From the NCBI RefSeq assembly GCF_001571345.1, contig NZ_BCTP01000022.1, positions 1 through 49,840 of the forward strand: DNA of 49,840 nucleotides. The letters are read 5' to 3'. The notes beneath the pieces are model-generated. The model saw only the letters and a program-made list of their open reading frames with translations. It was not told the origin of the DNA and ran no database searches. A program made the position numbers and the translations under genes. This stretch comes from Komagataeibacter xylinus NBRC 15237. GTDB taxonomy: Bacteria; Pseudomonadota; Alphaproteobacteria; Acetobacterales; Acetobacteraceae. Below are positions 2,644 through 46,420 of the stretch, piece after piece. The stretch's first letter is position 1; every line of letters starts with the position of its first letter.

Positions 2644-3296
2644 TACGCGGCCGTCTTCGGCAGGGCGTACACAATCTTGTCTCCGTTGAACGAGACGATC
2701 CCTCGCCTCTGCATCTCGTCAATGAGCGCGCCTGCTCCTCCTGTGTCGAGCTGCTTTCCAAAAAGGCAAAGGATTTCTGCCTGCAACGACTTCCGGCGCT
2801 TCGGTTTCGCTGCCCCCTGACGTCGCAGACACGCCACGAGTTTCTTGACGCGTTCCTCAGAGCCATTTTGCGGCACGCTCTTTTTTTCGGGCGCCACAGG
2901 TTTCTCTGGCGGAGACGGAACCCTTTCGCAGACAATCCCCTTCTCGCACAGATGCAGGATCAGCGGATCGAAACCCGTATCTTTCGAGACGATCAGAAAG
3001 CGTGCGTCGGGATCCAGTGCAGAGAGATGTCCGACAGAATACGCCACATGGAAGTCCAGAGCGTTCGGACCGTTTCCGCTGATGCGCACGTAAGAAGCGC
3101 GGGAACCCAGCCCCTGTATGGCCTGCGCCAGATCGATGCTGATCTTTGTCTGCAATGCACCGACGAAGACGTGAACCCGGACGTCATCACGAGCGCACAG
3201 GGCCAGAATGTCCGGCTGCACGTTTTCATAATCGATCAGCACATGCAGCGTCGTGCCTGTTTTCGATTCAGAAAACGACTGGCCAATGTGGTTCAT
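2643..3296 (-). CDS. NYN/PIN-like domain protein (putative RNase)
   Basis: 217 residues. The opening strand HVLIDYENVQ (aspartate near 22, asparagine near 25), the LDF segment near 80-82 and IVSKDTGFDPL near 102-112 are the acidic landmarks of the NYN/LabA-like PIN-fold ribonucleases. The C-terminal 70 residues are a basic linker followed by a small helical region resembling the OST-HTH/winged-helix segment seen in this family. The ATG at 3296 is chosen because GAGG lies 6 bases upstream; a longer reading to 3419 has no such site. It probably cleaves RNA; the partner is unknown. Confidence 0.7.
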   Translation of the reverse strand: MNHIGQSFSESKTGTTLHVLIDYENVQPDILALCARDDVRVHVFVGALQTKISIDLAQAIQGLGSRASYVRISGNGPNALDFHVAYSVGHLSALDPDARFLIVSKDTGFDPLILHLCEKGIVCERVPSPPEKPVAPEKKSVPQNGSEERVKKLVACLRRQGAAKPKRRKSLQAEILCLFGKQLDTGGAGALIDEMQRRGIVSFNGDKIVYALPKTAA

Positions 3297-3448
3297 GAGA
3301 CCCTCGTCAATCCATCGATCACAGACGGGACACGCCGATGATGCGACCACAAACCGCGCCCTGATGACGGGCAGACTATTTCTGTGGCATTTCGAGGTGT
3401 CGGCCGACACCCGCGTCAATGCCGTCCGAAAGAGGATACGACACCAAT

Positions 3449-3862
3449 ATGAGCAAGGCGTTCATCGCAGCGGTGCTGCAGGACAGCATGGGAAGCACAG
3501 GCGTTGCGGCCGGTAAGGCAGCCGAGGATCTGATTGAGGCGCTTGTCTCCGAGCTGGAGAAAACCGGCAGCTTTACCCTGCCCGGCTTCGGCACGTTTCG
3601 GGTGAAAGACACCCCGGCGCGCTCGGCATTGAATCCCCGCACTCTGGAAACGGTCCAGGTCGAGGCCGGACGGACCGTTCGTTTCAAGGCGTCCCCCGTG
3701 CTGAAGGCGCGTGTTGCGCCACCAAAACCTGCGACCAGGACAAAGAAAGCGTCGACCAGGGCGTCAGTCAGAACATCCACGAAATCACCGGCCAAAGGCG
3801 CCGCCGCTGCGGATACGGCAGCCGCTCCCGCGAAAAAGACCCGCGCTCGGCGCACGGCCTGA
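3449..3862 (+). CDS. HU family DNA-binding protein with histone-like tail
   Basis: 137 residues. Residues 1-90 are an HU/IHF-type fold: N-terminal helices (KAFIAAVLQDS, KAAEDLIEALVSELEK), then the GSFTLPGFGTFRV saddle signature and the arm region (PRTLETVQVEAGRTVRFKAS). The last 45 residues are Ala/Lys/Arg/Thr-rich, like a histone H1 tail. It should bend and compact DNA. The ATG at 3449 begins the fold directly; an upstream in-frame ATG at 3419 would add ten residues. It is divergent from the NYN gene. Confidence 0.85.
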   Translation: MSKAFIAAVLQDSMGSTGVAAGKAAEDLIEALVSELEKTGSFTLPGFGTFRVKDTPARSALNPRTLETVQVEAGRTVRFKASPVLKARVAPPKPATRTKKASTRASVRTSTKSPAKGAAAADTAAAPAKKTRARRTA

Positions 3863-3891
3863 GGGCGGCTTCACACAAGCGCCACCATACG

Positions 3892-3922
3892 GATAGCGGG
3901 TAGCTGAAAGATAGCGGGTAGC
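3892..3922. repeat. Two 13-bp direct repeats downstream of the HU gene
   Basis: GATAGCGGGTAGC occurs at 3892-3904 and again at 3910-3922, 18 bases apart start to start. They lie in the 200-base non-coding stretch between the HU gene and the next small gene, and could be a protein-binding site. Nothing else is visible in this gap. Confidence 0.5.
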
Positions 3923-4060
3923 GAGCGTGCGGTCGTTGCCGCGAGGCCTGCTGCCTGACGAATCAGCGACCGGCCAAGACGTTTTCCGCGCATTTTCTTA
4001 TCACTGGTCGCATGATGGTGGCCGACACTGATCTCCTCGCACAAGCAGGAGATCTTCTTC

Positions 4061-4261
4061 ATGACATCTCATAACCGCCTCACCGCGCTGCTGCACAGAC
4101 GCACACCAGGCGAATGCGCGGTCATCCGACGGGCTCACTCCGGCTATACCGCCGTCCGGTCAACGCTTTCGCAGCGCGGACGCATACGCCGGACAGATAT
4201 GACCCCGGCATGGGGTTACGGCCTCACGCCGACTCACCCTGCGCCCAGGAGCACGATGTGA
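4061..4261 (+). CDS. Possible small basic protein coupled to the next gene
   Basis: 66 residues, arginine-rich, no recognisable domain. AGGAG stands about 10 bases before the ATG at 4061, and its TGA shares one base with the next gene's ATG (TGATG at 4259-4263). These two facts support translation. The composition is unremarkable and it could be only a leader that couples translation of the membrane protein downstream. Confidence 0.4.
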   Translation: MTSHNRLTALLHRRTPGECAVIRRAHSGYTAVRSTLSQRGRIRRTDMTPAWGYGLTPTHPAPRSTM

Positions 4262-6410: not shown

Positions 6411-7664
6411 TTACCCGATCAACAGTCGCGCACCGAGTGCCGTGAAGAGCGCAACGGGCATGGCCACGGCACCAAGCCTGAGAAATTGCAAAAACCCGAC
6501 CTCTTCGCCTTCTCGACGGATCACCTGCAACCAGAGGATTGTGGCCAGAGATCCCGTCACGGACAGGTTTGGGCCAAGATCCACACCGATCAACAGGTGA
6601 TCGATCACCAGTCGCGGGACATGCGCCTGCGCCACTGTCTCACTGGCAATCAAGCCGGCAGGCAGGTTGTTCATAATATTGGAGATAAAGGCCAAAAGAG
6701 CGCCAGCTCCCCAGGCAGCAGTGACAGGATCGCTTTTGGCGGCGTGCTGAAGCAGGCGGGCAAGCACCCCGACCACTCCAGTACTTTCAACGGCGGCCAC
6801 CAGAACGAACAGGCCGCCGACCAGCGGGAGAACGCCCCATGAAATATCCCGCATGAGCGCAATCGGTGATCGTCGCGCCAGCACCGACACGCCCAAACCT
6901 GTTCCAATGCCAGCAAGTGCTGTTGGCAGGCCGAGAGACAGATCAAATGCGGACACTGTGACAAGCAGAAGCGCGGTCAGGACGATGCCGACAAAAGCCG
7001 CCTTGCCGCCCAGTGTTAATGGGGTGGCTGCAACCTGTGAGGCGCAGTCCTGACGCAGGTGTGACCGTTCCATGAGGCGCAAAACCAGATAGGTCGTCAT
7101 GATTGCCAGGAGCGATGGTAGCGCGAATGACCTCATCCATGATCCCAGCGCGGGGAGTGCGCCGTCATACAGAACCAGGTTCGCCGGGTTGGAGACGGGC
7201 AGGACAAAGCTTGCCGCATTGGCGACGAGTGCACAGGCAAACAACGGCGGAAGGGGATCAGCTTTTGCCTTTTTTGCTGCCGCGAACACGGCGGGAGTCA
7301 GCACAACAGCCGTCGCATCGTTGGACATGAACGTCGTCACCACGACACCGGCCAGATAGACCAGTGTGAACAGCTTTGCCATTGAACCTGCGGCATGATT
7401 GACGGCCCAGGTGGCTATCCAGTCGAACAGCCCGTTTGCACGCGCCGTTTCACTGAGCAGCATCATGCCGATCAGAAACAGATAAACATCGCCACCTTTC
7501 AGAAGGCCGGCCTCCGCCATTGTCAGAGGGATCAACCCCACCAGCACAAGAGCTGCGGCCCCTATGACGGCCCATATCCACTCCGGGGTCCGGAACGGTC
7601 GGAGAATAACACCGGCCGTCGCCAGAACAGCGATCGTCCAGATCGCCTCCTGGTGAAAGGTCAT
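6411..7664 (-). CDS. ArsB/NhaD-type (ion transporter superfamily) permease
   Basis: 417 residues with about ten or more hydrophobic spans. Signatures of the ArsB/NhaD/SLC13-like group are visible: MSNDATAVVLTPAVFAAAKK near residues 113-132, the re-entrant VANAASFVLPVSNPANLVLYDG segment, and in the second half FISNIMNNLPAGLIAS and GVDLGPNLSVTGSLATILWL. These fit an arsenite or other anion/cation efflux permease. The ATG at 7664 overlaps the MFS stop (ATGA), so the longer upstream reading frame is rejected. No arsR or arsC lies nearby, so the substrate is uncertain. Confidence 0.82.
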   Translation of the reverse strand: MTFHQEAIWTIAVLATAGVILRPFRTPEWIWAVIGAAALVLVGLIPLTMAEAGLLKGGDVYLFLIGMMLLSETARANGLFDWIATWAVNHAAGSMAKLFTLVYLAGVVVTTFMSNDATAVVLTPAVFAAAKKAKADPLPPLFACALVANAASFVLPVSNPANLVLYDGALPALGSWMRSFALPSLLAIMTTYLVLRLMERSHLRQDCASQVAATPLTLGGKAAFVGIVLTALLLVTVSAFDLSLGLPTALAGIGTGLGVSVLARRSPIALMRDISWGVLPLVGGLFVLVAAVESTGVVGVLARLLQHAAKSDPVTAAWGAGALLAFISNIMNNLPAGLIASETVAQAHVPRLVIDHLLIGVDLGPNLSVTGSLATILWLQVIRREGEEVGFLQFLRLGAVAMPVALFTALGARLLIG

Positions 7665-12690: not shown

Positions 12691-13940
12691 TTACGACCAC
12701 ATGCCGCGTAATCTGGCTGCCATATCGATCCTTACGGATTTCACGGCTTCCTGCCGAGCCTGCTCTTCCGGTTTTACGACAGGCCATGACACGGCTTCGA
12801 ACAAAGGCAGCATGTCCCGATCAATGAAACGTGTCCGCGAGGCATAGACATGCCGGTCGTCCCGGCTGTGCTGGCCATGCACATAGAAGCGCTGCGGCAC
12901 CATGATATCGAGACTGTCCTTCGCCCGCGTCATGGCAACATAGAGCAGCCGGCGTTCCTCTTCGATGTCGTCCTGTTCGCCCGTCGCCAGATCGGACGGA
13001 ATGCAGCCGTCGACGGCGTTCATGACGAACACGTTCTTCCATTCCTGCCCCTTGGCGGAATGAATGGTCGAGAGGATCAGATAGTCTTCATCCAGCAACG
13101 GCACGCCAGCCTGATCGGATGTGGCATCTGGCGGGTCCAGCGTCAGTTCGGTCAGGAACTTCTCTCGTGACGGATACCCCCCGGCGATCTGCTCAAGCTG
13201 CACCAGATCGGCCAGACGGGTGGAGGCGTCCTCATGCAGCCGCTCCAGATGCGGCTCATACCAGTACCGCACAGCCGCGATCTCGCCCGGCCAGCCGACC
13301 TGATGACTGCCAAGGGCTGTCAGCATATTCACGAAACCCGACCAGGCCTCGCCACTGCGCTGTGGGGCTTTGATATCCTTCAACGCCTCGAAGGGATGGG
13401 CATTCTCACCCATCGTATCCAGCACGCGCCGGGCCGAACCCGGCCCCACGCCCGGCAGAAGCTGCAGGACCCGAAAGCCCGCAATGCGGTCGCGCGGGTT
13501 CTGAGCAAAGCGCAGCAGCGCCAGCACGTCCTTCACATGGGCGCTGTCGAGAAACTTCAGGCCGCCGAACTTCACGAACGGGATGTTGCGCCTTGTCAGT
13601 TCCACCTCCAGCGTGCCGCTATGGTGCGAAGCCCGGAACAGCACGGCCTGCTGCTTCATCGGTGTTCCGGCTTCACGCTTTTCCAGCACCCGATCCGCGA
13701 TGTAGTTGGCCTGGGCGGTATCGTCCCAGATGGTAACCAGTCGTGGCTTTTCATCCGAGGCCCGTTCGGTCCACAGATCCTTGGTGAACCGTTCGGCTGC
13801 TTCGCCGATGACGGCGTTGGCCGCATCCAGAATGGGTTTCGTGGAACGATAGTTCCGGTCCAGCGTCACGATGCAGGCCGGAGGATCGAAGGACGCCGGA
13901 AAATCAAGGATGTTGCGCACGGTCGCCGCCCGAAAGGCGT
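12691..13940 (-). pseudogene. 3' part of a UvrD/Rep-type helicase gene split by an insertion
   Basis: This frame holds the C-terminal 416 residues of a superfamily 1A helicase. It resumes exactly after motif III with AFRAATVRNILDFP, then carries LDRNYRST (motif IV), the TIHSAKGQEWKNVFV region (motif V) and EERRLLYVAMTRAKDSL (motif VI). The N-terminal half lies at 19521-20378. Joining 20378-19521, one T, and 13940-12691 gives 2109 bases, a continuous frame of 702 codons plus stop, with motif III restored as GDDSQSIYAFRAA. The fragment could be translated from a GTG at 13920 but would lack the Walker A motif. Confidence 0.92.
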
Positions 13941-13945
13941 TTATG

Positions 13946-13954
13946 TGGAATACA
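13946..13954 (+). repeat. Terminal inverted repeat, end next to the helicase gene
   Basis: TGGAATACA lies 5 bases inside the element border (13941). Its inverted partner is at 19500-19508. The position, the match and the flanking AT-rich bases fit arm or core sites for the two tyrosine recombinases. Confidence 0.65.
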
Positions 13955-13979
13955 ATTTCACAACCTCAAAAAAGCAATT

Positions 13980-16199
13980 TTAAGGTTTCTTTAGGCGGGA
14001 TAGATGACCTGTACCTGACGTACCCACCAGCCAGTCTCTCAGTTTTGACCAACGTAGCCTTCCGCCCTGATTTCGCACAGCTATGGCCAGAGCCTTCTTC
14101 TGCCCGACCAGCACGACGAGCTTCCGCCCCCGTGTAACACCGGTATAAAGCAGGTTCCGCGCCAGCATCGTATAATGCTGCGTCACCAGCGGGATGACCA
14201 CTACCGGATATTCCGAGCCCTGGCTCTTGTGAATGGTCGTCGCGTAGGCCAGCACCAGTTCGTCCAACTCGCCGAAGCCGTAAACGACCTCCCGTCCATC
14301 GAATAAGACCGTCAGTTCGCCCTCTTCCACATCGATCTTGTCGATAACGCCGAGATCCCCGTTGAAGACGTCCCGGTCATAATCGTTGGCGATCTGCATC
14401 ACCTTGTCGCCGGGACCGTAGGTCCAGCCGAACCGCTCGACCTTCACGTCGCCTGCCGGGTTCAGCGCCTGCTGCAACTCGATATTCAGCGACCGTGCGC
14501 CCAGCCCACCCCGGTTCATCGGGCAGAGCACCTGCACGTCGCGGACCGGGTCCAGCCCGAACCGCGCCGGGATGCGGTCCTTCACCACGGCCAGCAACTT
14601 GCGCAGTCCGACCTCGGGCTCAGCCGCCTCCACGAAATAGAAATCCGATCCCTCTTCCGCGCTCAGCTCCGGCATCTTCCCTTCGTTGATCCGGTGCGCG
14701 TTGGTGATGATCCGGCTCTGTGCCGCCTGGCGGAACACCTCGGTCAGGCGCACCACAGGGACAGCATCGGAGCCAATGATATCGGCCAGCACCTGCCCCG
14801 GTCCGACAGAAGGCAACTGGTCCACGTCGCCGACGATCAGCAGAGCCGCGCTGTCAGGTAACGCGCGCAGCAGGGAGCGCATCAGCAGCACGTCGACCAT
14901 GCTGGCCTCGTCCACAACCAGCAGGTCGCAGGTCAGCGGGTTGGTATCGTCCCGTTTGAAACTGCCATTGCCCGGATCCGTCTCCAGCAGTCTATGGATG
15001 GTCTTGCCTTCCAGCCCCGTGCTTTCCGACAGGCGCTTCGCCGCCCGGCCGGTCGGCGCGCAAAGTTGCACGTCTGTGCCCTTGGCAGTCACGATCTTCA
15101 GAATGGCGTTGACCAGCGTGGTCTTGCCCACGCCAGGACCACCCGTGATCACCAGCACCTTGCTACGCAGTGCAAGGCGCACCGCTTCCTGCTGGCTGGG
15201 CGCCATGGCAAGTCCGGTCTTGCCTTCCACCCAAGTCATGGCCTTTTCAGCGTCGATGTCAGGCCAGGGTGGACGGCCAATGGCACAGGCGCGCAACCGC
15301 TCGGCGATGCTCTGCTCGGCACGATAGAGACCAGTCAGGAAGATACAGCCCGTATCGCCCACGCTGTCTGCCACCACGTCGCCCGCTTCCAGTTCCAGCG
15401 CGAGGGCCGTCTCGATCAGAGGAGTGGCGACCTCCAGCAGTTCGGCGGTACTGGTCAGCAACTCTCCCACAGGCAGGCCGCAATGCCCTTCATCCATCGC
15501 TTCACCAAGCGCGTAGGATATCCCGGCCCGCACCCGGATCATCGCGTCAGGCGCGATCCCCATCTTACGGGCGATCTGGTCGGCGGTCTTGAAGCCGATC
15601 CCCCGGATATCCTTCGCCAGCCTATAGGGATTTTCGCTGATCAGTTGGACCGCGTCCTGCCCGTAAGTCTTGAATATCCGCACGGCCCGCGAGGTGCCGA
15701 CGCCGTTGCTATGCAGGAACAGCATGATCTCGCGGATCACCTTCTGGTCCGCCCAGCCACCGACAATCCGTTCGGCCCGCTTGGGACCGATGCCCGTCAC
15801 TTCCCGCAGGCGATGCGGTTCCTGCTCGATCAGGTCGAACACCGCCTCGCCGAACGCTTTCACCAGCTTTTTCGCATAGACGGGTCCGATACCCCGGATC
15901 ATGCCAGAACCGAGATAACGCTCGATGCCCTCGATCGTGGTCGGCGGGCTGGCCTTGAGGAACTCCGCCTTGAACTGGAGGCCGTGGGTATGATCGTTGA
16001 ACCAGCGCCCAGACATCTGCACGAACTCGCCCGCCGAGATCATGGCGGCATGGCCGACGACGGTGACCAGATCGCGCTGGCCACGCACCTTCACGCGCAG
16101 GACACAGAAACCGTTCTCGGCATTGTGGAACGTCACCCGCTCCACGAGGCCAGCCAGCGCTTCCGTTTGGCATTGTTCTCCAACCACGGCACTGGTCAT
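13980..16199 (-). CDS. RecD2-type ATP-dependent DNA helicase, third gene of the element
   Basis: 739 residues. An N-terminal OB-like region and helix-hairpin-helix repeats (YLGSGMIRGIGPVYAKKLV, VTGIGPKRAERIV, IRGIGFKTADQIA) precede the motor: Walker A GGPGVGKT near 353-360, Walker B DEAS near 430-433, motif III GDVDQLPSVGPG near 457, and a C-terminal YATTIHKSQGSEYPVV. This is the 5'-3' RecD2 (long RecD-like) superfamily 1B helicase. The start is the ATG at 16199, which overlaps the recombinase TGA (ATGA at 16196-16199). It ends 39 bases from the element border. One sampled 60-base row here is about 65% GC against 48% in the large recombinase, which suggests a separate origin. Confidence 0.9.
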   Translation of the reverse strand: MTSAVVGEQCQTEALAGLVERVTFHNAENGFCVLRVKVRGQRDLVTVVGHAAMISAGEFVQMSGRWFNDHTHGLQFKAEFLKASPPTTIEGIERYLGSGMIRGIGPVYAKKLVKAFGEAVFDLIEQEPHRLREVTGIGPKRAERIVGGWADQKVIREIMLFLHSNGVGTSRAVRIFKTYGQDAVQLISENPYRLAKDIRGIGFKTADQIARKMGIAPDAMIRVRAGISYALGEAMDEGHCGLPVGELLTSTAELLEVATPLIETALALELEAGDVVADSVGDTGCIFLTGLYRAEQSIAERLRACAIGRPPWPDIDAEKAMTWVEGKTGLAMAPSQQEAVRLALRSKVLVITGGPGVGKTTLVNAILKIVTAKGTDVQLCAPTGRAAKRLSESTGLEGKTIHRLLETDPGNGSFKRDDTNPLTCDLLVVDEASMVDVLLMRSLLRALPDSAALLIVGDVDQLPSVGPGQVLADIIGSDAVPVVRLTEVFRQAAQSRIITNAHRINEGKMPELSAEEGSDFYFVEAAEPEVGLRKLLAVVKDRIPARFGLDPVRDVQVLCPMNRGGLGARSLNIELQQALNPAGDVKVERFGWTYGPGDKVMQIANDYDRDVFNGDLGVIDKIDVEEGELTVLFDGREVVYGFGELDELVLAYATTIHKSQGSEYPVVVIPLVTQHYTMLARNLLYTGVTRGRKLVVLVGQKKALAIAVRNQGGRLRWSKLRDWLVGTSGTGHLSRLKKP

Positions 16200-18421
16200 T
16201 CTGATTCTGTGAATGGAGAAGACACTTGGGAACCACATGTTGCCGAAATTTCGCCAGGCCTTCGGCCATCCAGCGCTGGCTTATCTCGAAGCTTGTTTAA
16301 CATTCCCTCCAACGCTTCAACGTCTCCGGACACAGCATCCCGTTCCTCTGGACTTAACCAGACCTCTTCCAGTAAACGATTAGCTGCTTGTTGAGCGGCC
16401 AGGACAACGCCCTTGGCGCTTGGCTTCGGAATGTTGAAATAACAGCGTGCGCATGCCATGCGATGCGGACAAGTGCTCCAAAACGCATTGCTACAGTAAG
16501 AATCACCTAAATCGTAATACTTCCAGGGTGCTCCATCCTTCGTTGCGCCTGCCGCAATAACCTCATTATCAATAACAATTTCGATCATCCGCGCCGCCTG
16601 ATCCGCCTTGGCAAACGCACTCGCCAATTGCGTAGGTTTCGACCGAACATAGCTCATCGTCGATTGAACGGACGTATGGCCGCACCATTTTGCCAAATCG
16701 AATATTGTCATTCCTTGCGGAACACTGGCCAGCATAGAAACGGCTGAAGCCCGTCCACGGTGACTTGTAATACGGCCTTTACTGTCCTCAATCGGAATAC
16801 CAGCCTTTTTGCACAAAAGCGGGATAACAGTCTGATTTAAAACTTCCTTCGCGATTGGCCTGTTTCGAAGTTGAAAGAGAAAATGCACATGTTCACCGGT
16901 TCTCCGATCAAGATGTTTGCGGGGTGACGCTCGTTTTTTCATCCAGGCCGTAATGTACTTATGAACAGCATGGCCGACCGGTTTGGTATACGCAACCGAA
17001 GTTTTGCCTTCCGGAACATCAAGCCAGCAGACCTGCCCTGCCGGAACGACGTTGCCAGACTGATCAACCACATCCTCTGATTGCTCGCGCGTGCAGCCGA
17101 CCCGAAGTCGGGCGATCTCATTGCTCCGAAGGCCTGCATGTGTCCACACCACGGCGATTGCCTGCAACAGGGCGAATGGATAGAAACAGTCAGGAGAAAG
17201 ATCGTCTGGTTCAATGTTGAAGCTGGCCCAGGTCAGTTTCAGCCAAGAAGCATCATCTATGGTCCTGGGATTTACGCCAAGATATTTCGCAATATTCTTC
17301 GGTGTCGAGAGATGATATCGCGGATTACACCGGAGCTGCGCCCATTCCCAACTCTGAATATCAGATAAAAACCGACGCATAACCTGATAATAAGCAACTT
17401 TCGTTGGAGCCTGTAGAGGCTGGCCAACTGTTGGGATCAGACGATAATCAAAGGTGGAACCGCCCCAATCGCCAATACGTAACCTGTCGACGGCGGCGAG
17501 ATAGTCGGCACATACCGATACCGTCCATTGCTCTGGTCCTGTGACCTCAGGATGCTCGCGACCCAACCAGATTCCGATACGGGTCAGAGTGTTGTAAACT
17601 GCTCGCCTCGACCCTTCTCGCAACGTTGTTGTTTCCAACCAACGTCGGCACCATGTCATCCACTCAGGATTGATATTATCAGTTTCAGTTCCATGACGAG
17701 GTTGGTATGCCTGGAAATGAATAACCTTCGATGTAAGCCCCATTGCGGCCAAACCGTTTGACAATATTCCAATCCGCTTGGCGATATGATTTCCTGTGTA
17801 ACACTCTCGTGTATGTTCCAGTATCTTCCTATCAAAACTTTCAAGTTTTGGATTCTCGCCTTGTAATGCAACTGCAGCAAATACTGATGGTACGAGGGGC
17901 CGAACGGTCTGACAGACGAAGCCGACACGGGTTAGGGCCGAGAACAGACGCTCACATTCTGTATCAACAATCTCCGCTCCAAAAACCAATCGGGCAACGA
18001 CAGCCGTCGCCACATTGCGTTGAATTTTGTACACGCTTCGAAAACCACACAGAAGATAAGCGACTGCAATCAACTGCGGTACCATTCCGGTTTTTTTCAG
18101 AACAGGACTATTATTGATAATCTCAACCCACAGGTCTTCACTCCACCCCCAGTAGGGTTTTTCCTGGTGTGCGACCGTCAGAAGCAAATACTTCAAAGCA
18201 CGATGGCTGTTAGCGCGGTCGAGATTGCTGCGATACAGGATGTCCGTCAGAGGCTTATGAAGACGCGGAGCCTGCCGTTTCGTAATAACAAGATTTTCTT
18301 CTTTCCAACGTCTGACAACTTTTAATTCGTCTGCAGACAATGTCGCCCGTCTGTCGTATTCATCGAGATTAATGTGGAATTTGTATTCGGGCTGGATGTG
18401 AGAAACCTGATATTCGGCCAC
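16196..18421 (-). CDS. Large tyrosine recombinase, TnpB-like (Tn554 family)
   Basis: 741 residues. The C-terminal catalytic domain has R432 (AGLRSNEIARL), H554-x2-R557 (TSHRGR), H582 (WCGHTSV) and the nucleophile Y591 (TMSYVRS). It is followed by a cysteine cluster C643, C651, C657, C660 (CPHRMACARC), which is typical of TnpB-type recombinases and probably binds zinc. The long N-terminal part should hold the core-binding domain. The start is the GTG at 18421 because GGAGG sits 8 bases upstream, within the last codons of the small recombinase, whose TAG ends 4 bases before. Codon use is less GC-rich than in neighbouring plasmid genes. Confidence 0.88.
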   Translation of the reverse strand: MAEYQVSHIQPEYKFHINLDEYDRRATLSADELKVVRRWKEENLVITKRQAPRLHKPLTDILYRSNLDRANSHRALKYLLLTVAHQEKPYWGWSEDLWVEIINNSPVLKKTGMVPQLIAVAYLLCGFRSVYKIQRNVATAVVARLVFGAEIVDTECERLFSALTRVGFVCQTVRPLVPSVFAAVALQGENPKLESFDRKILEHTRECYTGNHIAKRIGILSNGLAAMGLTSKVIHFQAYQPRHGTETDNINPEWMTWCRRWLETTTLREGSRRAVYNTLTRIGIWLGREHPEVTGPEQWTVSVCADYLAAVDRLRIGDWGGSTFDYRLIPTVGQPLQAPTKVAYYQVMRRFLSDIQSWEWAQLRCNPRYHLSTPKNIAKYLGVNPRTIDDASWLKLTWASFNIEPDDLSPDCFYPFALLQAIAVVWTHAGLRSNEIARLRVGCTREQSEDVVDQSGNVVPAGQVCWLDVPEGKTSVAYTKPVGHAVHKYITAWMKKRASPRKHLDRRTGEHVHFLFQLRNRPIAKEVLNQTVIPLLCKKAGIPIEDSKGRITSHRGRASAVSMLASVPQGMTIFDLAKWCGHTSVQSTMSYVRSKPTQLASAFAKADQAARMIEIVIDNEVIAAGATKDGAPWKYYDLGDSYCSNAFWSTCPHRMACARCYFNIPKPSAKGVVLAAQQAANRLLEEVWLSPEERDAVSGDVEALEGMLNKLRDKPALDGRRPGEISATCGSQVSSPFTESE

Positions 18422-18425
18422 TGTT

Positions 18426-19457
18426 CTATCCTCCGAAGACCCTGTTACCAAGATTCATATCCATCTGTTCGACCGAGTGTGCGATTTTACGGAGAAGATC
18501 TTCACCAGATAGATGGATATAAAGTGTCGTACTTTGAACATTGCGGTGTCCGGCATACGTTGCGATATCGTGCAGACGCCAGCCTGACCGGGCCAAGTGC
18601 GTCAGTCTCAGATGTCTCAAGGTATGAGTACTGAACGCCGGTATGCCGGCTTGAAGGGCAAGACGTCTGACAGTTTTGCTCCATGACCACTTCGTTATGG
18701 GCTGTCGAAAGTTTCGATCTGACTCAGACAGAAACAAGGCACCTGAATGGGTTGTCGCACCGCGTCGACGATGTAAATACACTGCCAACACAGGACAAAT
18801 CACTGCTGAGTAACAAACCACTCGAGCGTGTGCACTTTTACTCGTCTCAGCCCGAATAGTGAGGAGACGTCTCGCAGGGTCAATATCCGACACCCTCAAA
18901 CCTACTAACTCTTCTCGGCGCAGTGCGCCATAGTAGGCCAAGGCGAACATGAGGCGATTTCTGACTGTTTCCTGTGCGACTATTTCTTGCAAGCGAGCCC
19001 ATTCTTCGTCAGATGGCAAATATGGCAGTAATTTGGAACGACGTACCAAACCATACCTGAACCCGACATGCTCCGAGAGTGGGCCGCGCCCTACAACCGC
19101 CTGCCCTCGCGGCACCGGATTTCGATGTTTGATTCCTTCAAAGACCAAATGATCATACCAAAGTCGGACGGCGGACAGGCGCTGATGAAGCGTAGCATTG
19201 CTCACAGCAGCGCGAGTGGATAGGAAAGGAACGTCTTCTCCACGTAAATACCTTACAAATAGTGAAACATGACTCAAAGTTGCTGCCTCAGGAGCAACAC
19301 CTGCTGCCTCACAAAAAAACAGATACTGTTCCAGACCTCTGGCATAGGCGTCTATGGTAGCGGGCGAACGGCCAAGATTGTCGAGCAACGAAAGCCATAA
19401 GCATCCTTGAGAGTTCTCAGAAACCTGCGGATATCGTGACCATTTAGGCTCAGGCAT
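18426..19457 (-). CDS. Small tyrosine recombinase, TnpA-like (Tn554 family)
   Basis: 343 residues. It has a SAM-like N-terminal domain (residues 20-110) and a complete catalytic set: R180 (GALRREEL), H278-x2-R281 (THTLRHLR), H304 (AGHRNVQ) and Y313 (TTLYIH). The ATG at 19457 has AAGGGAGGG about 6 bases upstream and is preferred over 19478. It is the first gene of the element operon. Together with the large recombinase it should catalyse excision and site-specific insertion. Confidence 0.9.
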   Translation of the reverse strand: MPEPKWSRYPQVSENSQGCLWLSLLDNLGRSPATIDAYARGLEQYLFFCEAAGVAPEAATLSHVSLFVRYLRGEDVPFLSTRAAVSNATLHQRLSAVRLWYDHLVFEGIKHRNPVPRGQAVVGRGPLSEHVGFRYGLVRRSKLLPYLPSDEEWARLQEIVAQETVRNRLMFALAYYGALRREELVGLRVSDIDPARRLLTIRAETSKSAHARVVCYSAVICPVLAVYLHRRRGATTHSGALFLSESDRNFRQPITKWSWSKTVRRLALQAGIPAFSTHTLRHLRLTHLARSGWRLHDIATYAGHRNVQSTTLYIHLSGEDLLRKIAHSVEQMDMNLGNRVFGG

Positions 19458-19499
19458 CGTACCCTCCCTTTGCAACACGAAGGTATAGATTCAAGCCGA

Positions 19500-19508
19500 T
19501 GTATTCCA
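19500..19508 (-). repeat. Terminal inverted repeat, end next to the small recombinase
   Basis: TGTATTCCA at 19500-19508 is the reverse complement of the repeat at 13946-13954. It lies 12 bases inside the border at 19520 and about 43 bases upstream of the small recombinase start, so a recombinase bound here could also repress the operon. Confidence 0.6.
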
Positions 19509-19520
19509 ACTAACTTATAA

Positions 19521-20378
19521 GATGCTCTGCGAATCATCGCCCACGCAGAACAGTTCTCCGGATTTCTTGCTGAGCAGGGTGAGCCAGAGATACTGCGCGC
19601 GGTTCACATCCTGAAATTCATCCGCCATCACGGCTGTGAAGCGGCCTGTCCAGCGGCGATGATAGGCCGGATCATGGAGCATGGCGAGAGTCGGCCACAT
19701 CAGGAGATCGCCAAAGTCCGCCGCGTTCTGCTCACGCAGAATGGCCTGATACCGGCCATAGAGCCCGACCACGAAACGCCAGCTCTCATGATCCACGAAG
19801 CGGTTGGCCGCCTGTCGCTTGCGGATCATGCTCTCGACATGCGCCCGGGCGGCTTCCGGTGTCACCAGATCCTCCTTCAGGCGCGAGATCCGCTCGGCCA
19901 TCTTTTTGATCTGTTTCGCATCTCCGGGAGCCCCCTCCTGCGGAACAGGAAGCTCCTCTTTCGGCATCGCCTTGATCAGGCGGCGCACAATCCCAAGACT
20001 GTCATCCGCATCGCGGATGTCGAAGCCGCTGCGCAGATGTGCCACTTCCGGCTCTGCACGAAGCTGGCGGGAGGCGAGCGCGTGGAATGTGCCGAGCCAG
20101 GTGGGCACCGAGTGCGGACCCAGAACGCCGGCGATGCGTTTCCGCATTTCCTGCGCGGCTTTGTTGGTGAAGGTGACGCACAGGATCTGACCCGGCACCA
20201 TGCCATACAGCTCGATGCGCGTCGCCACGCCGGCTGTCAGGGTTTTGGTCTTACCCGTGCCGGCACCGGCCAGGACCAGAACATGGCCGAGAGCCATGGC
20301 GGCGCGGCGCTGTTCCGCCGTCAGATCGTCAAGGATCGGCGCCAGGGCATACGGAACAGGAAGATCATCGGGTGTCAT
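19521..20378 (-). pseudogene. 5' part of a UvrD/Rep-type helicase gene split by an insertion
   Basis: 286 host codons of a superfamily 1A helicase: Q-motif TAEQRRAAM, Walker A AGAGTGKT (residues 37-44), motif Ia TFTNKAAQEMRKRI, GTFHALASRQLR, and Walker B DEFQDVN near 253-259. It ends at GDDSQSI, where the inserted element supplies Leu and a TAA. The ATG at 20378 overlaps the preceding gene's stop (ATGA at 20375-20378) and fixes the start. Translation now yields a 287-residue product without motifs IV-VI, so helicase activity should be lost unless the element excises. Confidence 0.92.
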
Positions 20379-21049
20379 AGCTCTTCGATCCCTTCCGCCA
20401 GACAACCATGCGTTTCGGTGATCTCACCGGTCGAGAGCAGGAGCGTCGCCGGGTAGGAGAGATCCCAGGTCTCAAGCCCGCGCTCCCAGCGTCCGTCGAT
20501 GACCAGACCGAGCGGACAGCCGACACGCTCATAAAGCCGCACAGCGGTCTGCGGGATCGGCGGATCCTCTTCGATCGGAGCATCGCTCCGGCGCAGATGA
20601 CGGGTCCAGATCTCGGCAGCCGGGGCCGATCGGGCGAACACCTCGGCGAGGTCCGTCACGAAGGCCAGGCGTGCAACGCCGAGATCCGCGTAATGGGCAA
20701 CAGTGGTCATGACAGTCTCCTGTGTCAGGTGATCCTGGAAACAGGATCGGTCAGCCGACAGGTCTGTGGCCCGCCAGCCGGCAATGACGATCACCTCGTG
20801 ATCATCGGTGAAGAGGACGATGCGCCCTTCCAGATCCCAGCCCTGAGGCAGGGAGGTGTCGCGTTCGCCGCCAATCACCACACCCCGGAATTCCGCTTTC
20901 CCGTCACCGATCTCGACAAAACAGTCAGGCTCGGCACATCCATGCGGGCGATGCTTCTTCCAGATCGCATTGGCCTGAGCGTGACCGGGAAGGATGTCCA
21001 GAAGGCGTCTCCGCCAGTTCTCGGACGCGAAAGGTTCGAACCAGCTCAT
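20375..21049 (-). CDS. Hypothetical protein between primase and helicase genes
   Basis: 224 residues, no recognised domain. It starts MSWFEPFASENWRRRLLDILP and has an acidic middle with the strand-rich segment GRIVLFTDDHEVIVIAGW. The ATG at 21049 overlaps the primase TGA (ATGA at 21046-21049), and its own TGA overlaps the uvrD start, so the three genes are translationally linked. This context suggests a role in DNA metabolism of incoming plasmid DNA. The longer frame reaching 21172 is rejected. Confidence 0.6.
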   Translation of the reverse strand: MSWFEPFASENWRRRLLDILPGHAQANAIWKKHRPHGCAEPDCFVEIGDGKAEFRGVVIGGERDTSLPQGWDLEGRIVLFTDDHEVIVIAGWRATDLSADRSCFQDHLTQETVMTTVAHYADLGVARLAFVTDLAEVFARSAPAAEIWTRHLRRSDAPIEEDPPIPQTAVRLYERVGCPLGLVIDGRWERGLETWDLSYPATLLLSTGEITETHGCLAEGIEEL

Positions 21050-44914: not shown

Positions 44915-46420
44915 TTAAAACCGCGTCTTCCCTGGATGCTTCGTGAGCGCCTGATCGTCTTCGATGTAAGCTTCCAGCACGCGGTAATCGCGATGCCGTG
45001 AGAAACGCTTGAGCGACATCAGGTCAAAGCCATCCTGTGCTCCGGTTGTGATGGCGCCACGGCGCAGGCTGTGGCCACTGAAGTCGCCTTCGATCCCGGC
45101 CACCACGCAACGCTGCTTGATGATCTTGGCGACCGACCAGTCCGAGAGGCTCTGCGCCCCAATCTTCGGGGCAGGGGGCGGCTCGTTGTCCTTAGCAGCG
45201 GCCGGTGCCCAGATCCGCGGGAAGGCAGCCGTCGTTACGTTCTCGCTGTCGGCCTTGGCCCCCTTGGTCTTTTTTCGCGGCGTCAGCTTCGACTGCCGCA
45301 GCCACGTCTCCCAGGCGCGCACCGGACAATGCCGGGTGATCCCGCGCGGAATGATGATCGTGGTGCCCTGATGTTTCTTGTCGCCTTTGGAGCGGGGGAG
45401 GGTGATCCGCATGCAGTCGTCGTCGAGCGTGACGTATTCAAGCTGGATTGCGGCCAGTTCGGAGCGGCGCAGGGCACCGCCATAGCCGATCAGCAGAATG
45501 GCGCGGTCACGGGCGTCCACCAGCGAGGTCATCGGGATCGCATCGACAACCTCGCAGATCATCTCCCAGGTCAGACCCTTTACCTGACGCGGCAGTGCTT
45601 TCCTTGGGGCGCGGTGAATGCCCGCCAGGGTCTCGGAAACGAGCGCGTGGGTAGTCGGAACCGGAAGATGGGCGATGTGATGGAGATAACGCAGCGCCGC
45701 CCGATGCAGTTCGATCGTGGGCGGCTTCCGTCCACGCAATGCGAGATCCGCGAGATAGGTCGCCACGTCCTCGCTGCGTGCGGGGAGGGCGGAAAGCCCA
45801 TGACGTCCCGCCCACGCACACCAGCCGCTGATGGCCGAGCGATAGGCGCGACGGGTATTGGCGGCCTTGCCGAGCTGCACGAAGGCACCAACGGCCGCCT
45901 GTGATGTCTCCAGTCGTCCGTCGTGTTCGGGGATATCCACTTCGGACAGGGCGGCGAACCAGCGCGCCACATTGGCTGGAGCCTGTCCAATAGGAGCAGG
46001 GACGGAAATCGCGTCCGGACCCTCTCTGTCAGCCTGCGCGGACATTGGCTTACCATGGTCAACCGGAACCAGGGACGCGACGAACGCCAGCCGTTGGCGA
46101 TCAAGCTCCAGCACCAGCTCAAGCCGGAAACCAACAGGTAGAGAGGGGAGGGCGGTTTCGACCATCGTGCGGGCAACGGCGGCGTGTTCCGCGCTTTGGG
46201 GGAGTTCAGTGTCCGGCAGGAAGTCGCCATCGGGAAGCGCGCTGCCGGCGATGAAGACGGGCAGGGGAGGGGAGAAGCAGGCGGTCGAGAGAATGGGGCG
46301 CAACACCTCGGCCGAAGCGTCGGCCTCGCCCAGACGTTGCCGGGTGAGACGATCCACCTGTTCGAGAACACGCGGGCGAAGAACGGGCCAGGATCCAGTC
46401 AGGTGGAGAGTGTCAAGCAT
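44915..46420 (-). CDS. Tyrosine recombinase/integrase
   Basis: 501 residues. The catalytic set is complete: R318 (GGALRRSEL), K near 346, H450-x2-R453 (SGHSLRRGA), H476 (FSRHRDY) and Y485 (LEAYIED). The SAM-like core-binding domain spans about residues 145-270. An extra N-terminal domain of about 140 residues is unusual and has no match that I know. It may resolve plasmid multimers or move a module; its position beside the par region favours resolution. The ATG at 46420 has AAGGGG unusually close. Confidence 0.88.
   Translation of the reverse strand: MLDTLHLTGSWPVLRPRVLEQVDRLTRQRLGEADASAEVLRPILSTACFSPPLPVFIAGSALPDGDFLPDTELPQSAEHAAVARTMVETALPSLPVGFRLELVLELDRQRLAFVASLVPVDHGKPMSAQADREGPDAISVPAPIGQAPANVARWFAALSEVDIPEHDGRLETSQAAVGAFVQLGKAANTRRAYRSAISGWCAWAGRHGLSALPARSEDVATYLADLALRGRKPPTIELHRAALRYLHHIAHLPVPTTHALVSETLAGIHRAPRKALPRQVKGLTWEMICEVVDAIPMTSLVDARDRAILLIGYGGALRRSELAAIQLEYVTLDDDCMRITLPRSKGDKKHQGTTIIIPRGITRHCPVRAWETWLRQSKLTPRKKTKGAKADSENVTTAAFPRIWAPAAAKDNEPPPAPKIGAQSLSDWSVAKIIKQRCVVAGIEGDFSGHSLRRGAITTGAQDGFDLMSLKRFSRHRDYRVLEAYIEDDQALTKHPGKTRF

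What the first reader, a model, noticed from the sequence alone, without database searches (positions are those of the whole stretch)
13941..19520. Helicase-bearing Tn554-like element splits a plasmid uvrD gene
Two tyrosine recombinases of TnpA/TnpB type are followed by a RecD2-type helicase in one overlapping operon filling the whole 5.58-kb element. In Tn554 the third gene is the small tnpC; here its place is held by a 739-residue helicase joined by ATGA to the large recombinase and ending 39 bases from the border. A helicase as an integral part of such an element would be a new transposition architecture.
Basis: partly seen in the sequence, partly recalled or inferred. Interest (0 to 1): 0.88.

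Follow-up and report, generated by a model that had tools for sequence, protein, structure and literature searches.

The report
Helicase-carrying transposon splitting plasmid uvrD
A small two-recombinase mobile element has cut a plasmid DNA-repair gene in two and carries a DNA helicase gene; the element belongs to a widespread kind whose other members carry other passengers or none, so the helicase is most likely captured cargo rather than a new transposition machine.

Summary
RecD2 follows the long recombinase in 13 of 13 readable copies of this Acetobacteraceae lineage (by ATGA overlap in 13 of 14 copies checked) and is under purifying selection (dN/dS 0.025-0.067). But 34 of 35 other loci with the same kind of recombinase lack it, including the sister element in a Roseomonas uvrD gene. 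End motifs (TTANNTGGAAT left, ATTCCACATAA right) are shared with 'integron-like elements' in umuC/rulB, which carry effector, metal, restriction or other genes at that place. RecD2 is common and free-standing in Acetobacteraceae; one capture explains this lineage. RecD2 was recruited again in genome G454 and sits beside a serine recombinase at seven other loci, so a helper role stays open. Unexpected: the split uvrD is chimeric (N half of one uvrD type, C half of another) and element copies are mosaic, so copies probably recombine with each other.

The parts
13941..19519 (-). the element, 5,579 bp, transcribed on the minus strand
   Evidence: junctions over copies and intact uvrD genes
19500..19519 (-). 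left (recombinase-side) end TATAAGTTAGTTGGAATACA; core motif TTANNTGGAAT
   Evidence: core motif within 400 bases before the short recombinase in 24 of 27 other loci where that gene is visible
13941..13953 (-). right (helicase-side) end GTATTCCACATAA; motif ATTCCACATAA
   Evidence: same motif after RecD2 in 12 other lineage copies, and downstream of the long recombinase in L029, L048, L050, L051, L114, L123, L125
18426..19478 (-). short tyrosine recombinase, 350 aa from GTG; HTLRH and GH...Y motifs by eye
   Evidence: PF00589 101 bits, PF02899
16196..18451 (-). long tyrosine recombinase, 751 aa from TTG (741 from GTG), catalytic domain preceded by about 430 residues; HRGR and GH...Y motifs by eye
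   Evidence: PF00589 40.1 bits at 435-605
13980..16199 (-). RecD2 SF1B helicase, 739 aa; Walker A GGPGVGKT; start overlaps the recombinase stop (ATGA)
   Evidence: TIGR01448 888 bits; domains
19520..20405 (-). uvrD N half, type I; reading runs into the element and stops as ...GDDSQSIL*
   Evidence: PF00580; 100% aa to L022, 99.3% to L024, 86.4% to the intact type I gene on G000 C31
12691..13940 (-). uvrD C half, type II
   Evidence: PF13361; 93.8% aa to A. pasteurianus 386B UvrD, 94.4% to the intact type II gene on G000 C51, 29% to the type I C half

Best explanation
A paired-tyrosine-recombinase transposon (Tn554-related; of the same kind as the two-recombinase 'integron-like elements' of umuC/rulB) whose Acetobacteraceae lineage sits in a tyrosine codon of conserved motifs of plasmid uvrD genes and has captured recD2. 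SHOWN by sequence: shared end motifs with inverted TGGAAT/ATTCCA cores; precise insertion between the T and A of the Tyr codon in GDDxQSIY; insertion in two uvrD types; RecD2 inside the ends, directly after the long recombinase, conserved and under purifying selection; relatives without it; one capture in this lineage; patchy identity among copies. INFERRED: the two recombinases act on the TGGAAT-bearing ends to excise or copy out the element and re-insert it; RecD2 is made from the same transcript by translational coupling; it serves the carrying plasmid or host (DNA repair or replication) rather than strand exchange; the window arrangement arose when an element copy in a type I uvrD recombined with one in a type II uvrD.
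For: Ends: (left core in 24 of 27, right motif in 8 of 37 other loci, one of the 8 as ATTCCACGTAA). Occupied and intact sites. Cargo at the same place in relatives (annotation): type III effector L050, P-type ATPase and ars L052, ars L076, nucleotidyltransferase with SAVED gene L073, restriction enzyme L074, MFS pump L080; none between recombinase and right end in L029, L114, L125. RecD2 in 13 of 13 lineage loci and 1 of 35 others. RecD2 tree: lineage copies with L025 in one clade (0.997) among free-standing ones. L025, whose long recombinase is 88% identical, has RecD2 at nearly the same distance and then two more genes and a transposase before its right end. dN/dS. Recombinase tree: L029, in uvrD and without RecD2, is sister to the RecD2 lineage (0.908), umuC elements next. 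Mosaic identity profile.
Against: RecD2 is in each readable lineage copy and is coupled to the recombinase by ATGA in 13 of 14. It follows the long recombinase in a second, distant lineage (G454: recombinase 41%, RecD2 78%), and a serine recombinase lies beside it at 7 of 12 loci with 93-96% identical RecD2. No chance model for such recurrence was computed. L078 and L126 show neither end motif. No excision, circle or activity was shown.
Confidence: 0.78

Rival explanations
1. RecD2 is a facultative mobility factor: it unwinds a strand-transfer or copy-out intermediate, or restarts replication on it, and so fills the place that TnpC/Srap-like helpers hold in relatives.
For: ATGA coupling in 13 of 14 lineage copies; 13 of 13 presence; purifying selection; second recruitment by a distant pair lineage; serine recombinase beside close RecD2s at 7 of 12 loci; copy-out is proposed for the related SEs (PMC10214605, passages).
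Against: L029, L114 and L125 have end motifs and no helicase. Kozakia, Roseomonas and Acidiphilium plasmids have RecD2 near par/rep genes without a TnpA/TnpB pair, though an unrelated annotated recombinase lies about 1 kb (L017) and 4 kb (L018) away. In L025 RecD2 is not coupled by ATGA (its nearest in-frame start is a GTG just past the stop) and other genes lie between it and the right end; in G454 too.
Confidence: 0.15
2. The chimeric uvrD flanks are a misassembly of two element copies.
For: Draft of 156 contigs; the element is multi-copy elsewhere: AC2005 has it on two plasmids, and in A. oeni it forms a 5,585-base contig ending at both borders (L019).
Against: One element copy in the assembly, with the contig running through it; the other type I and type II uvrD genes of this genome are intact, so the reciprocal broken halves are missing; copies elsewhere are visibly mosaic.
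Confidence: 0.12
3. recD2 lies downstream of the element by an unrelated event and the element ends before it.
For: RecD2 is common and found in several contexts.
Against: The right-end motif lies beyond RecD2 in the 13 lineage copies where it is held, and homology with other plasmids breaks there.
Confidence: 0.02

Closest known systems
Integron-like elements in rulB/umuC, e.g. the two-recombinase element of P. syringae pDC3000A (L050)
   Same: homologous pair (53% and 42% aa), same end motifs at both borders, insertion in a codon of a plasmid DNA-repair gene, cargo after the long recombinase
   Different: target uvrD, cargo RecD2; the experimentally mobile ILEs of Rhodes et al. have three recombinases and a GAT direct repeat (PMC4542609: abstract and sections 7, 10, 11 read)
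Tn554 (Staphylococcus)
   Same: one ordinary and one long tyrosine recombinase in tandem; site-specific insertion (in radC, recalled)
   Different: no tnpC; other target; outermost right-hand bases constant, so no donor-derived footprint
Tn554-related long+short recombinase pairs of actinobacterial plasmids, some without TnpC
   Same: short plus long recombinase (PMC3414803, passages); TTANNTGGAAT before the short recombinase in the actinobacterial loci read here, except L075 and those where that gene was not visible
   Different: long recombinase about 32-37% aa over most of its length, no RecD2; that these loci belong to the paper's families was not tested
Strand-biased circularizing elements, GInts, RITs
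   Same: several tyrosine recombinases, target specificity
   Different: no Tfp/Srap, GinC/GinD or third recombinase here (PMC10214605 passages; PMC5385486 outline with abstract)
Free-standing recD2 of Kozakia, Roseomonas and Acidiphilium plasmids
   Same: 94%, 78% and 69% aa RecD2
   Different: no TnpA/TnpB pair beside it

Membership tests
Tn554 family sensu stricto | short + long tyrosine recombinases in tandem | tested here: met
Tn554 family sensu stricto | third gene tnpC | tested here: not met
   the three genes fill the element
Tn554 family sensu stricto | insertion in radC (recalled) | tested here: not met
   target is uvrD
Tn554 family sensu stricto | 6 bp copied from the donor's left flank to the new right end (PMC10214605, passages) | tested here: not met
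   ATTCCACATAA at the right end in 13 lineage copies with two uvrD types, and in umuC-type L048, L050, L051
Paired-recombinase element of pDC3000A kind | homologous recombinase pair | tested here: met
   L050 53% / 42% aa
Paired-recombinase element of pDC3000A kind | shared terminal motifs at both borders | tested here: met
   L050: TTAAGTGGAAT at 2474, ATTCCACATAA at 6701
Paired-recombinase element of pDC3000A kind | variable cargo on the far side of the recombinases | tested here: met
rulB ILE as in Rhodes et al. 2014 | rulB target with GAT repeat; three recombinases and tetR | tested here: not met
   uvrD target, two recombinases
Active transposon | excision or transposition observed | not testable with these tools
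   no reads or bench data; only occupied and empty sites
RecD2 helicase (TIGR01448) | equivalog cut-off and domain order | tested here: met
   888 bits against 500; domains
RIT element | three tyrosine recombinases | tested here: not met
   two
Anti-phage defence system | match to a PADLOC system | tested here: inconclusive
   RecD2 matches typeIV_RecD and other helicase models, the recombinases nothing

The most novel reading that the evidence does not exclude
RecD2 is a portable helper of integrating elements in Acetobacteraceae: it was coupled independently to two TnpA/TnpB lineages and to a serine-recombinase island head because a dedicated helicase improves processing of integration, excision or copy-out intermediates, making the window element a helicase-assisted paired-recombinase transposon.
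Probability: 0.14. Interest if true: 0.72.

Novelty: new variant of a known kind. Interest (0 to 1): 0.48.

Why it matters
It ties scattered observations (Tn554-like pairs, rulB/umuC integron-like elements, actinobacterial recombinase pairs) together through one set of terminal motifs, adds uvrD as a target beside umuC, and shows that such elements carry whatever gene they captured, here a helicase. The motifs may allow borders to be called by sequence in hundreds of plasmids. If the helper reading held, it would be a rare case of a dedicated helicase in tyrosine-recombinase transposition.

Tried and rejected
Rejected: the helicase as a defining part of the family. Rejected: the element ending before the helicase in this lineage. 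Rejected as the likelier account: misassembly of the chimeric uvrD. Considered and dropped: L047 (Methylomonas) as a minimal element; its right end was not found and it lies inverted relative to umuC. Led nowhere: Rfam scan of 13000-20500, no match; the repeat finder on the two border stretches, searched apart, could not show the shared end motif; the alignment A1 served only as a container for the Pfam scan (89 of the 137 neighbour ORFs).

Literature: searches found no paper; some searches found 11, 52, 23, 32, 9 and 44, of which at most 20 are listed; none of the listed titles describes a uvrD-inserted element or one with RecD2. Only open-licence PMC papers are held, so this is no proof of novelty.

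Limits of the counts: the 14 plasmid loci of relatives were picked by hand from two 60-row listings of 589 records, not at random. Of the 35 loci, seven (L039-L044, L046) match under half of the long recombinase, and three (L040, L044, L127) hold under 3 kb downstream. Dropped before the count: L114 (221 bases downstream, though its right end lies 96 bases past the recombinase), L023 (contig ends inside the gene), L028 (recombinase C-terminus and RecD2 lost); twins L092, L093, L111, L116, L115, L117-L120 and L122 were counted once. Mended on re-checking: in L025 RecD2 does not start at the ATGA; the serine recombinase is beside 7 of 12, not of 14, close RecD2 loci.
Full report
WHAT IS THERE. 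The window is contig C22 of a 3.62-Mb draft genome in 156 contigs. The genus is probably Komagataeibacter: a genome listed as 'same genus', G012, holds a contig stretch identical to K. europaeus LMG 18890 (inference). On the minus strand lie a uvrD N half, a short tyrosine recombinase (350 aa), a long one (751 aa), a 739-aa RecD2 helicase and a uvrD C half. RecD2 scores 888 bits against TIGR01448, cut-off 500. Both recombinases keep H-x-x-R and GH...Y motifs by eye. The three genes fill the element; nothing is left for a TnpC.

BORDERS AND EMPTY SITES. In the plasmid collection the 13 listed Acetobacter records with element DNA begin to match at window base 13940, and two records with the uvrD C half but no element stop there. 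The junctions read AGCATCT|TATAAGTTAGTTGGAATACA and GTATTCCACATAA|ACGCC. Intact sites read CAGAGCATTTACGCC in A. pasteurianus 386B, CAGAGCATCTATTCCTGG on contig C31 and CAGAGTATCTATGCC on contig C51 of the window's own genome (both genes open). The insertion splits the Tyr codon of GDDxQSIY.

A FAMILY WITH SHARED ENDS. The long recombinase finds 589 plasmid records: 12 at 95-99% identity, 577 under 60%. Fourteen of the distant ones were read. In eight (L048-L052, L073, L074, L080; long recombinase 39.5-43.8%) the left end follows directly on umuC codons for SSN(Y/F)xL. Over all distant loci with a visible short recombinase, TTANNTGGAAT lies within 400 bases before it in 24 of 27; L075, L078 and L126 lack it. 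ATTCCACATAA is found beyond the long recombinase in L029, L048, L050, L051, L114, L123 and L125, and ATTCCACGTAA in L075, so in 8 of the 37 loci scanned; the others may reach further than the DNA held, or differ. In L048 and L050 a Y-family polymerase gene or UmuC C-terminal part is annotated a few bases past it; in L051 this is my reading of the letters, without an annotated gene. The right-most bases do not change with the target, which speaks against a Tn554/SE-type footprint. L029 is inserted in a uvrD at another Tyr codon, DEYQDVNSVQ|(Y)RWL (by eye).

IS THE HELICASE INTEGRAL? Of loci whose long recombinase C-terminus was held, the 13 of this lineage (window, L012, L013, L014, L019, L020, L021, L022, L024, L025, L026, L027, L031) have RecD2 directly after it (L021 only its first 178 residues before the contig ends). 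AC2005 plas2 (L163) is a fourteenth. In 13 of these 14 RecD2 starts at the ATG that overlaps the recombinase stop; in L025 the nearest in-frame start is a GTG six bases after the first base of the stop. Of 35 other loci, 34 have no RecD2 within 3 kb or to the end of the DNA held; G454 (L123) has it. In L029, L114 and L125 the right-end motif comes at +82, +96 and -4 bases from the recombinase match, so these have no cargo. The RecD2 tree puts all lineage RecD2s, L025 included, in one clade (0.997) among free-standing ones, and G454's far off, though its own place is weakly supported (0.449). In the recombinase tree L029 is sister to the lineage (0.908) and G454 lies in a distant group. So: one capture here after the split from L029, and a separate one in G454. 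In G454 the long recombinase is split over two contigs near residue 405; its C-terminus and RecD2 are on one contig, the link to the short recombinase is inferred. dN/dS of RecD2 is 0.025-0.067 in six comparisons within the lineage and 0.041-0.062 in four with free RecD2s.

WHERE RECD2 COMES FROM. RecD2 passes its cut-off in 52 of 249 genomes of the family, up to four copies in one (G461). Of 37 RecD2 loci read with flanks, twelve, from nine genomes, have RecD2 93-96% identical to the window's; seven of these twelve carry a large serine recombinase beside RecD2, mutually about 94-95% identical (interrupted in L136), and none of the other 25 does by that query (domains). In six of the seven the outer side of the shared block carries CCCCCGCAACCA, in L134 as part of a tRNA-like 3' end (by eye), so these look like islands at a tRNA gene. 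Other neighbours by Pfam include phage integrase (3 of 89 ORFs, one of them the G454 recombinase itself), ParA-type ATPase (2), methyladenine glycosylase (2), SNase (3) and RepC (1). RecD2 is thus a roaming accessory gene.

THE CHIMERIC uvrD AND MOSAIC COPIES. The N half is type I (100% aa to L022), the C half type II (93.8% to UvrD of A. pasteurianus 386B); the two types are 28-31% identical. Seven other copies with both flanks held (L012, L013, L020, L022, L024, L025, L028) are type I on both sides; K. europaeus has a type II N flank (L011, 92%) and a type II C flank (L026, 95%) on two contigs. The window genome has intact type I and type II genes elsewhere, 79.9% and 88.9% identical in DNA to the window's halves, and one element copy. 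Copies differ patchily: the first kilobase is 99.6-100% identical to L012, L022, L023 and L024 but 78-82% to L013, L021 and L028; positions 3250-4250 match L012 (and L021 as far as held), the last kilobase L014, L019, L020 and L022. Recombination between element copies in the two uvrD types is the simplest source of the window arrangement.

MECHANISM. Most likely the two recombinases act together on the TGGAAT-bearing ends (inferred) and insert the element in codons of conserved protein motifs. RecD2 rides in the operon and is made with the recombinases. Its benefit is more likely to plasmid or host DNA metabolism than to strand exchange, since elements with the same ends do without it; this last step is inference.

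LITERATURE. Rhodes et al. 2014 (PMC4542609; abstract and sections 7, 10, 11) show active ILE insertion in rulB. PMC3414803 (passages) describes long+short pairs, some without TnpC, with 0 occurrences of 'helicase'; PMC10214605 (passages) and PMC8138268 (passages) also have 0. PMC5385486 was seen as outline with abstract, PMC10425158 and PMC5424326 as passages.

VERDICT. Real, precisely bounded, present in several Acetobacteraceae plasmids, with a captured helicase: a new variant (target and cargo) of a known kind, not a new transposition architecture on present evidence.

Noticed in passing
L128, L129, L130, L131, L134, L136, L137: Shared block of about 4.1-4.8 kb: large serine recombinase divergent from RecD2 (93-96% to the window's), at different places; outer edge with a tRNA-like 3' end in six of seven. 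Looks like the head of a family of islands.
   Followed up: partly
window 12691-20405: The halves of the split uvrD come from two uvrD types; element copies may mediate recombination between plasmids.
   Followed up: partly
L025 12746-16600: Element variant with two ORFs that look by eye like glycosyltransferase/membrane genes and a transposase between RecD2 and the right end.
   Followed up: partly
L123 1243-8160: Second recombinase-pair lineage with RecD2, followed by an N6-methylase gene and others before a right-end motif.
   Followed up: partly
L125 5389-6240: Right end of a RecD2-free relative abuts what looks by eye like a transposase gene, so targets are not only repair genes (untested).
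   Followed up: no
L132, L133 (G427): 99.8% identical 2.58-kb block with most of a methyladenine-glycosylase gene and RecD2 at two chromosomal places.
   Followed up: no
L047 6800-10200: Methylomonas relative lies in the opposite orientation in umuC compared with the others; right end not found.
   Followed up: no
window 44915-46420: A further tyrosine recombinase-like ORF (501 aa; PF00589 match at 44954-45523).
   Followed up: no
L015 6262-9251: The intact type II uvrD is next to annotated ImuA, DUF6504 and error-prone polymerase genes, so this target too is a DNA-damage locus.
   Followed up: no
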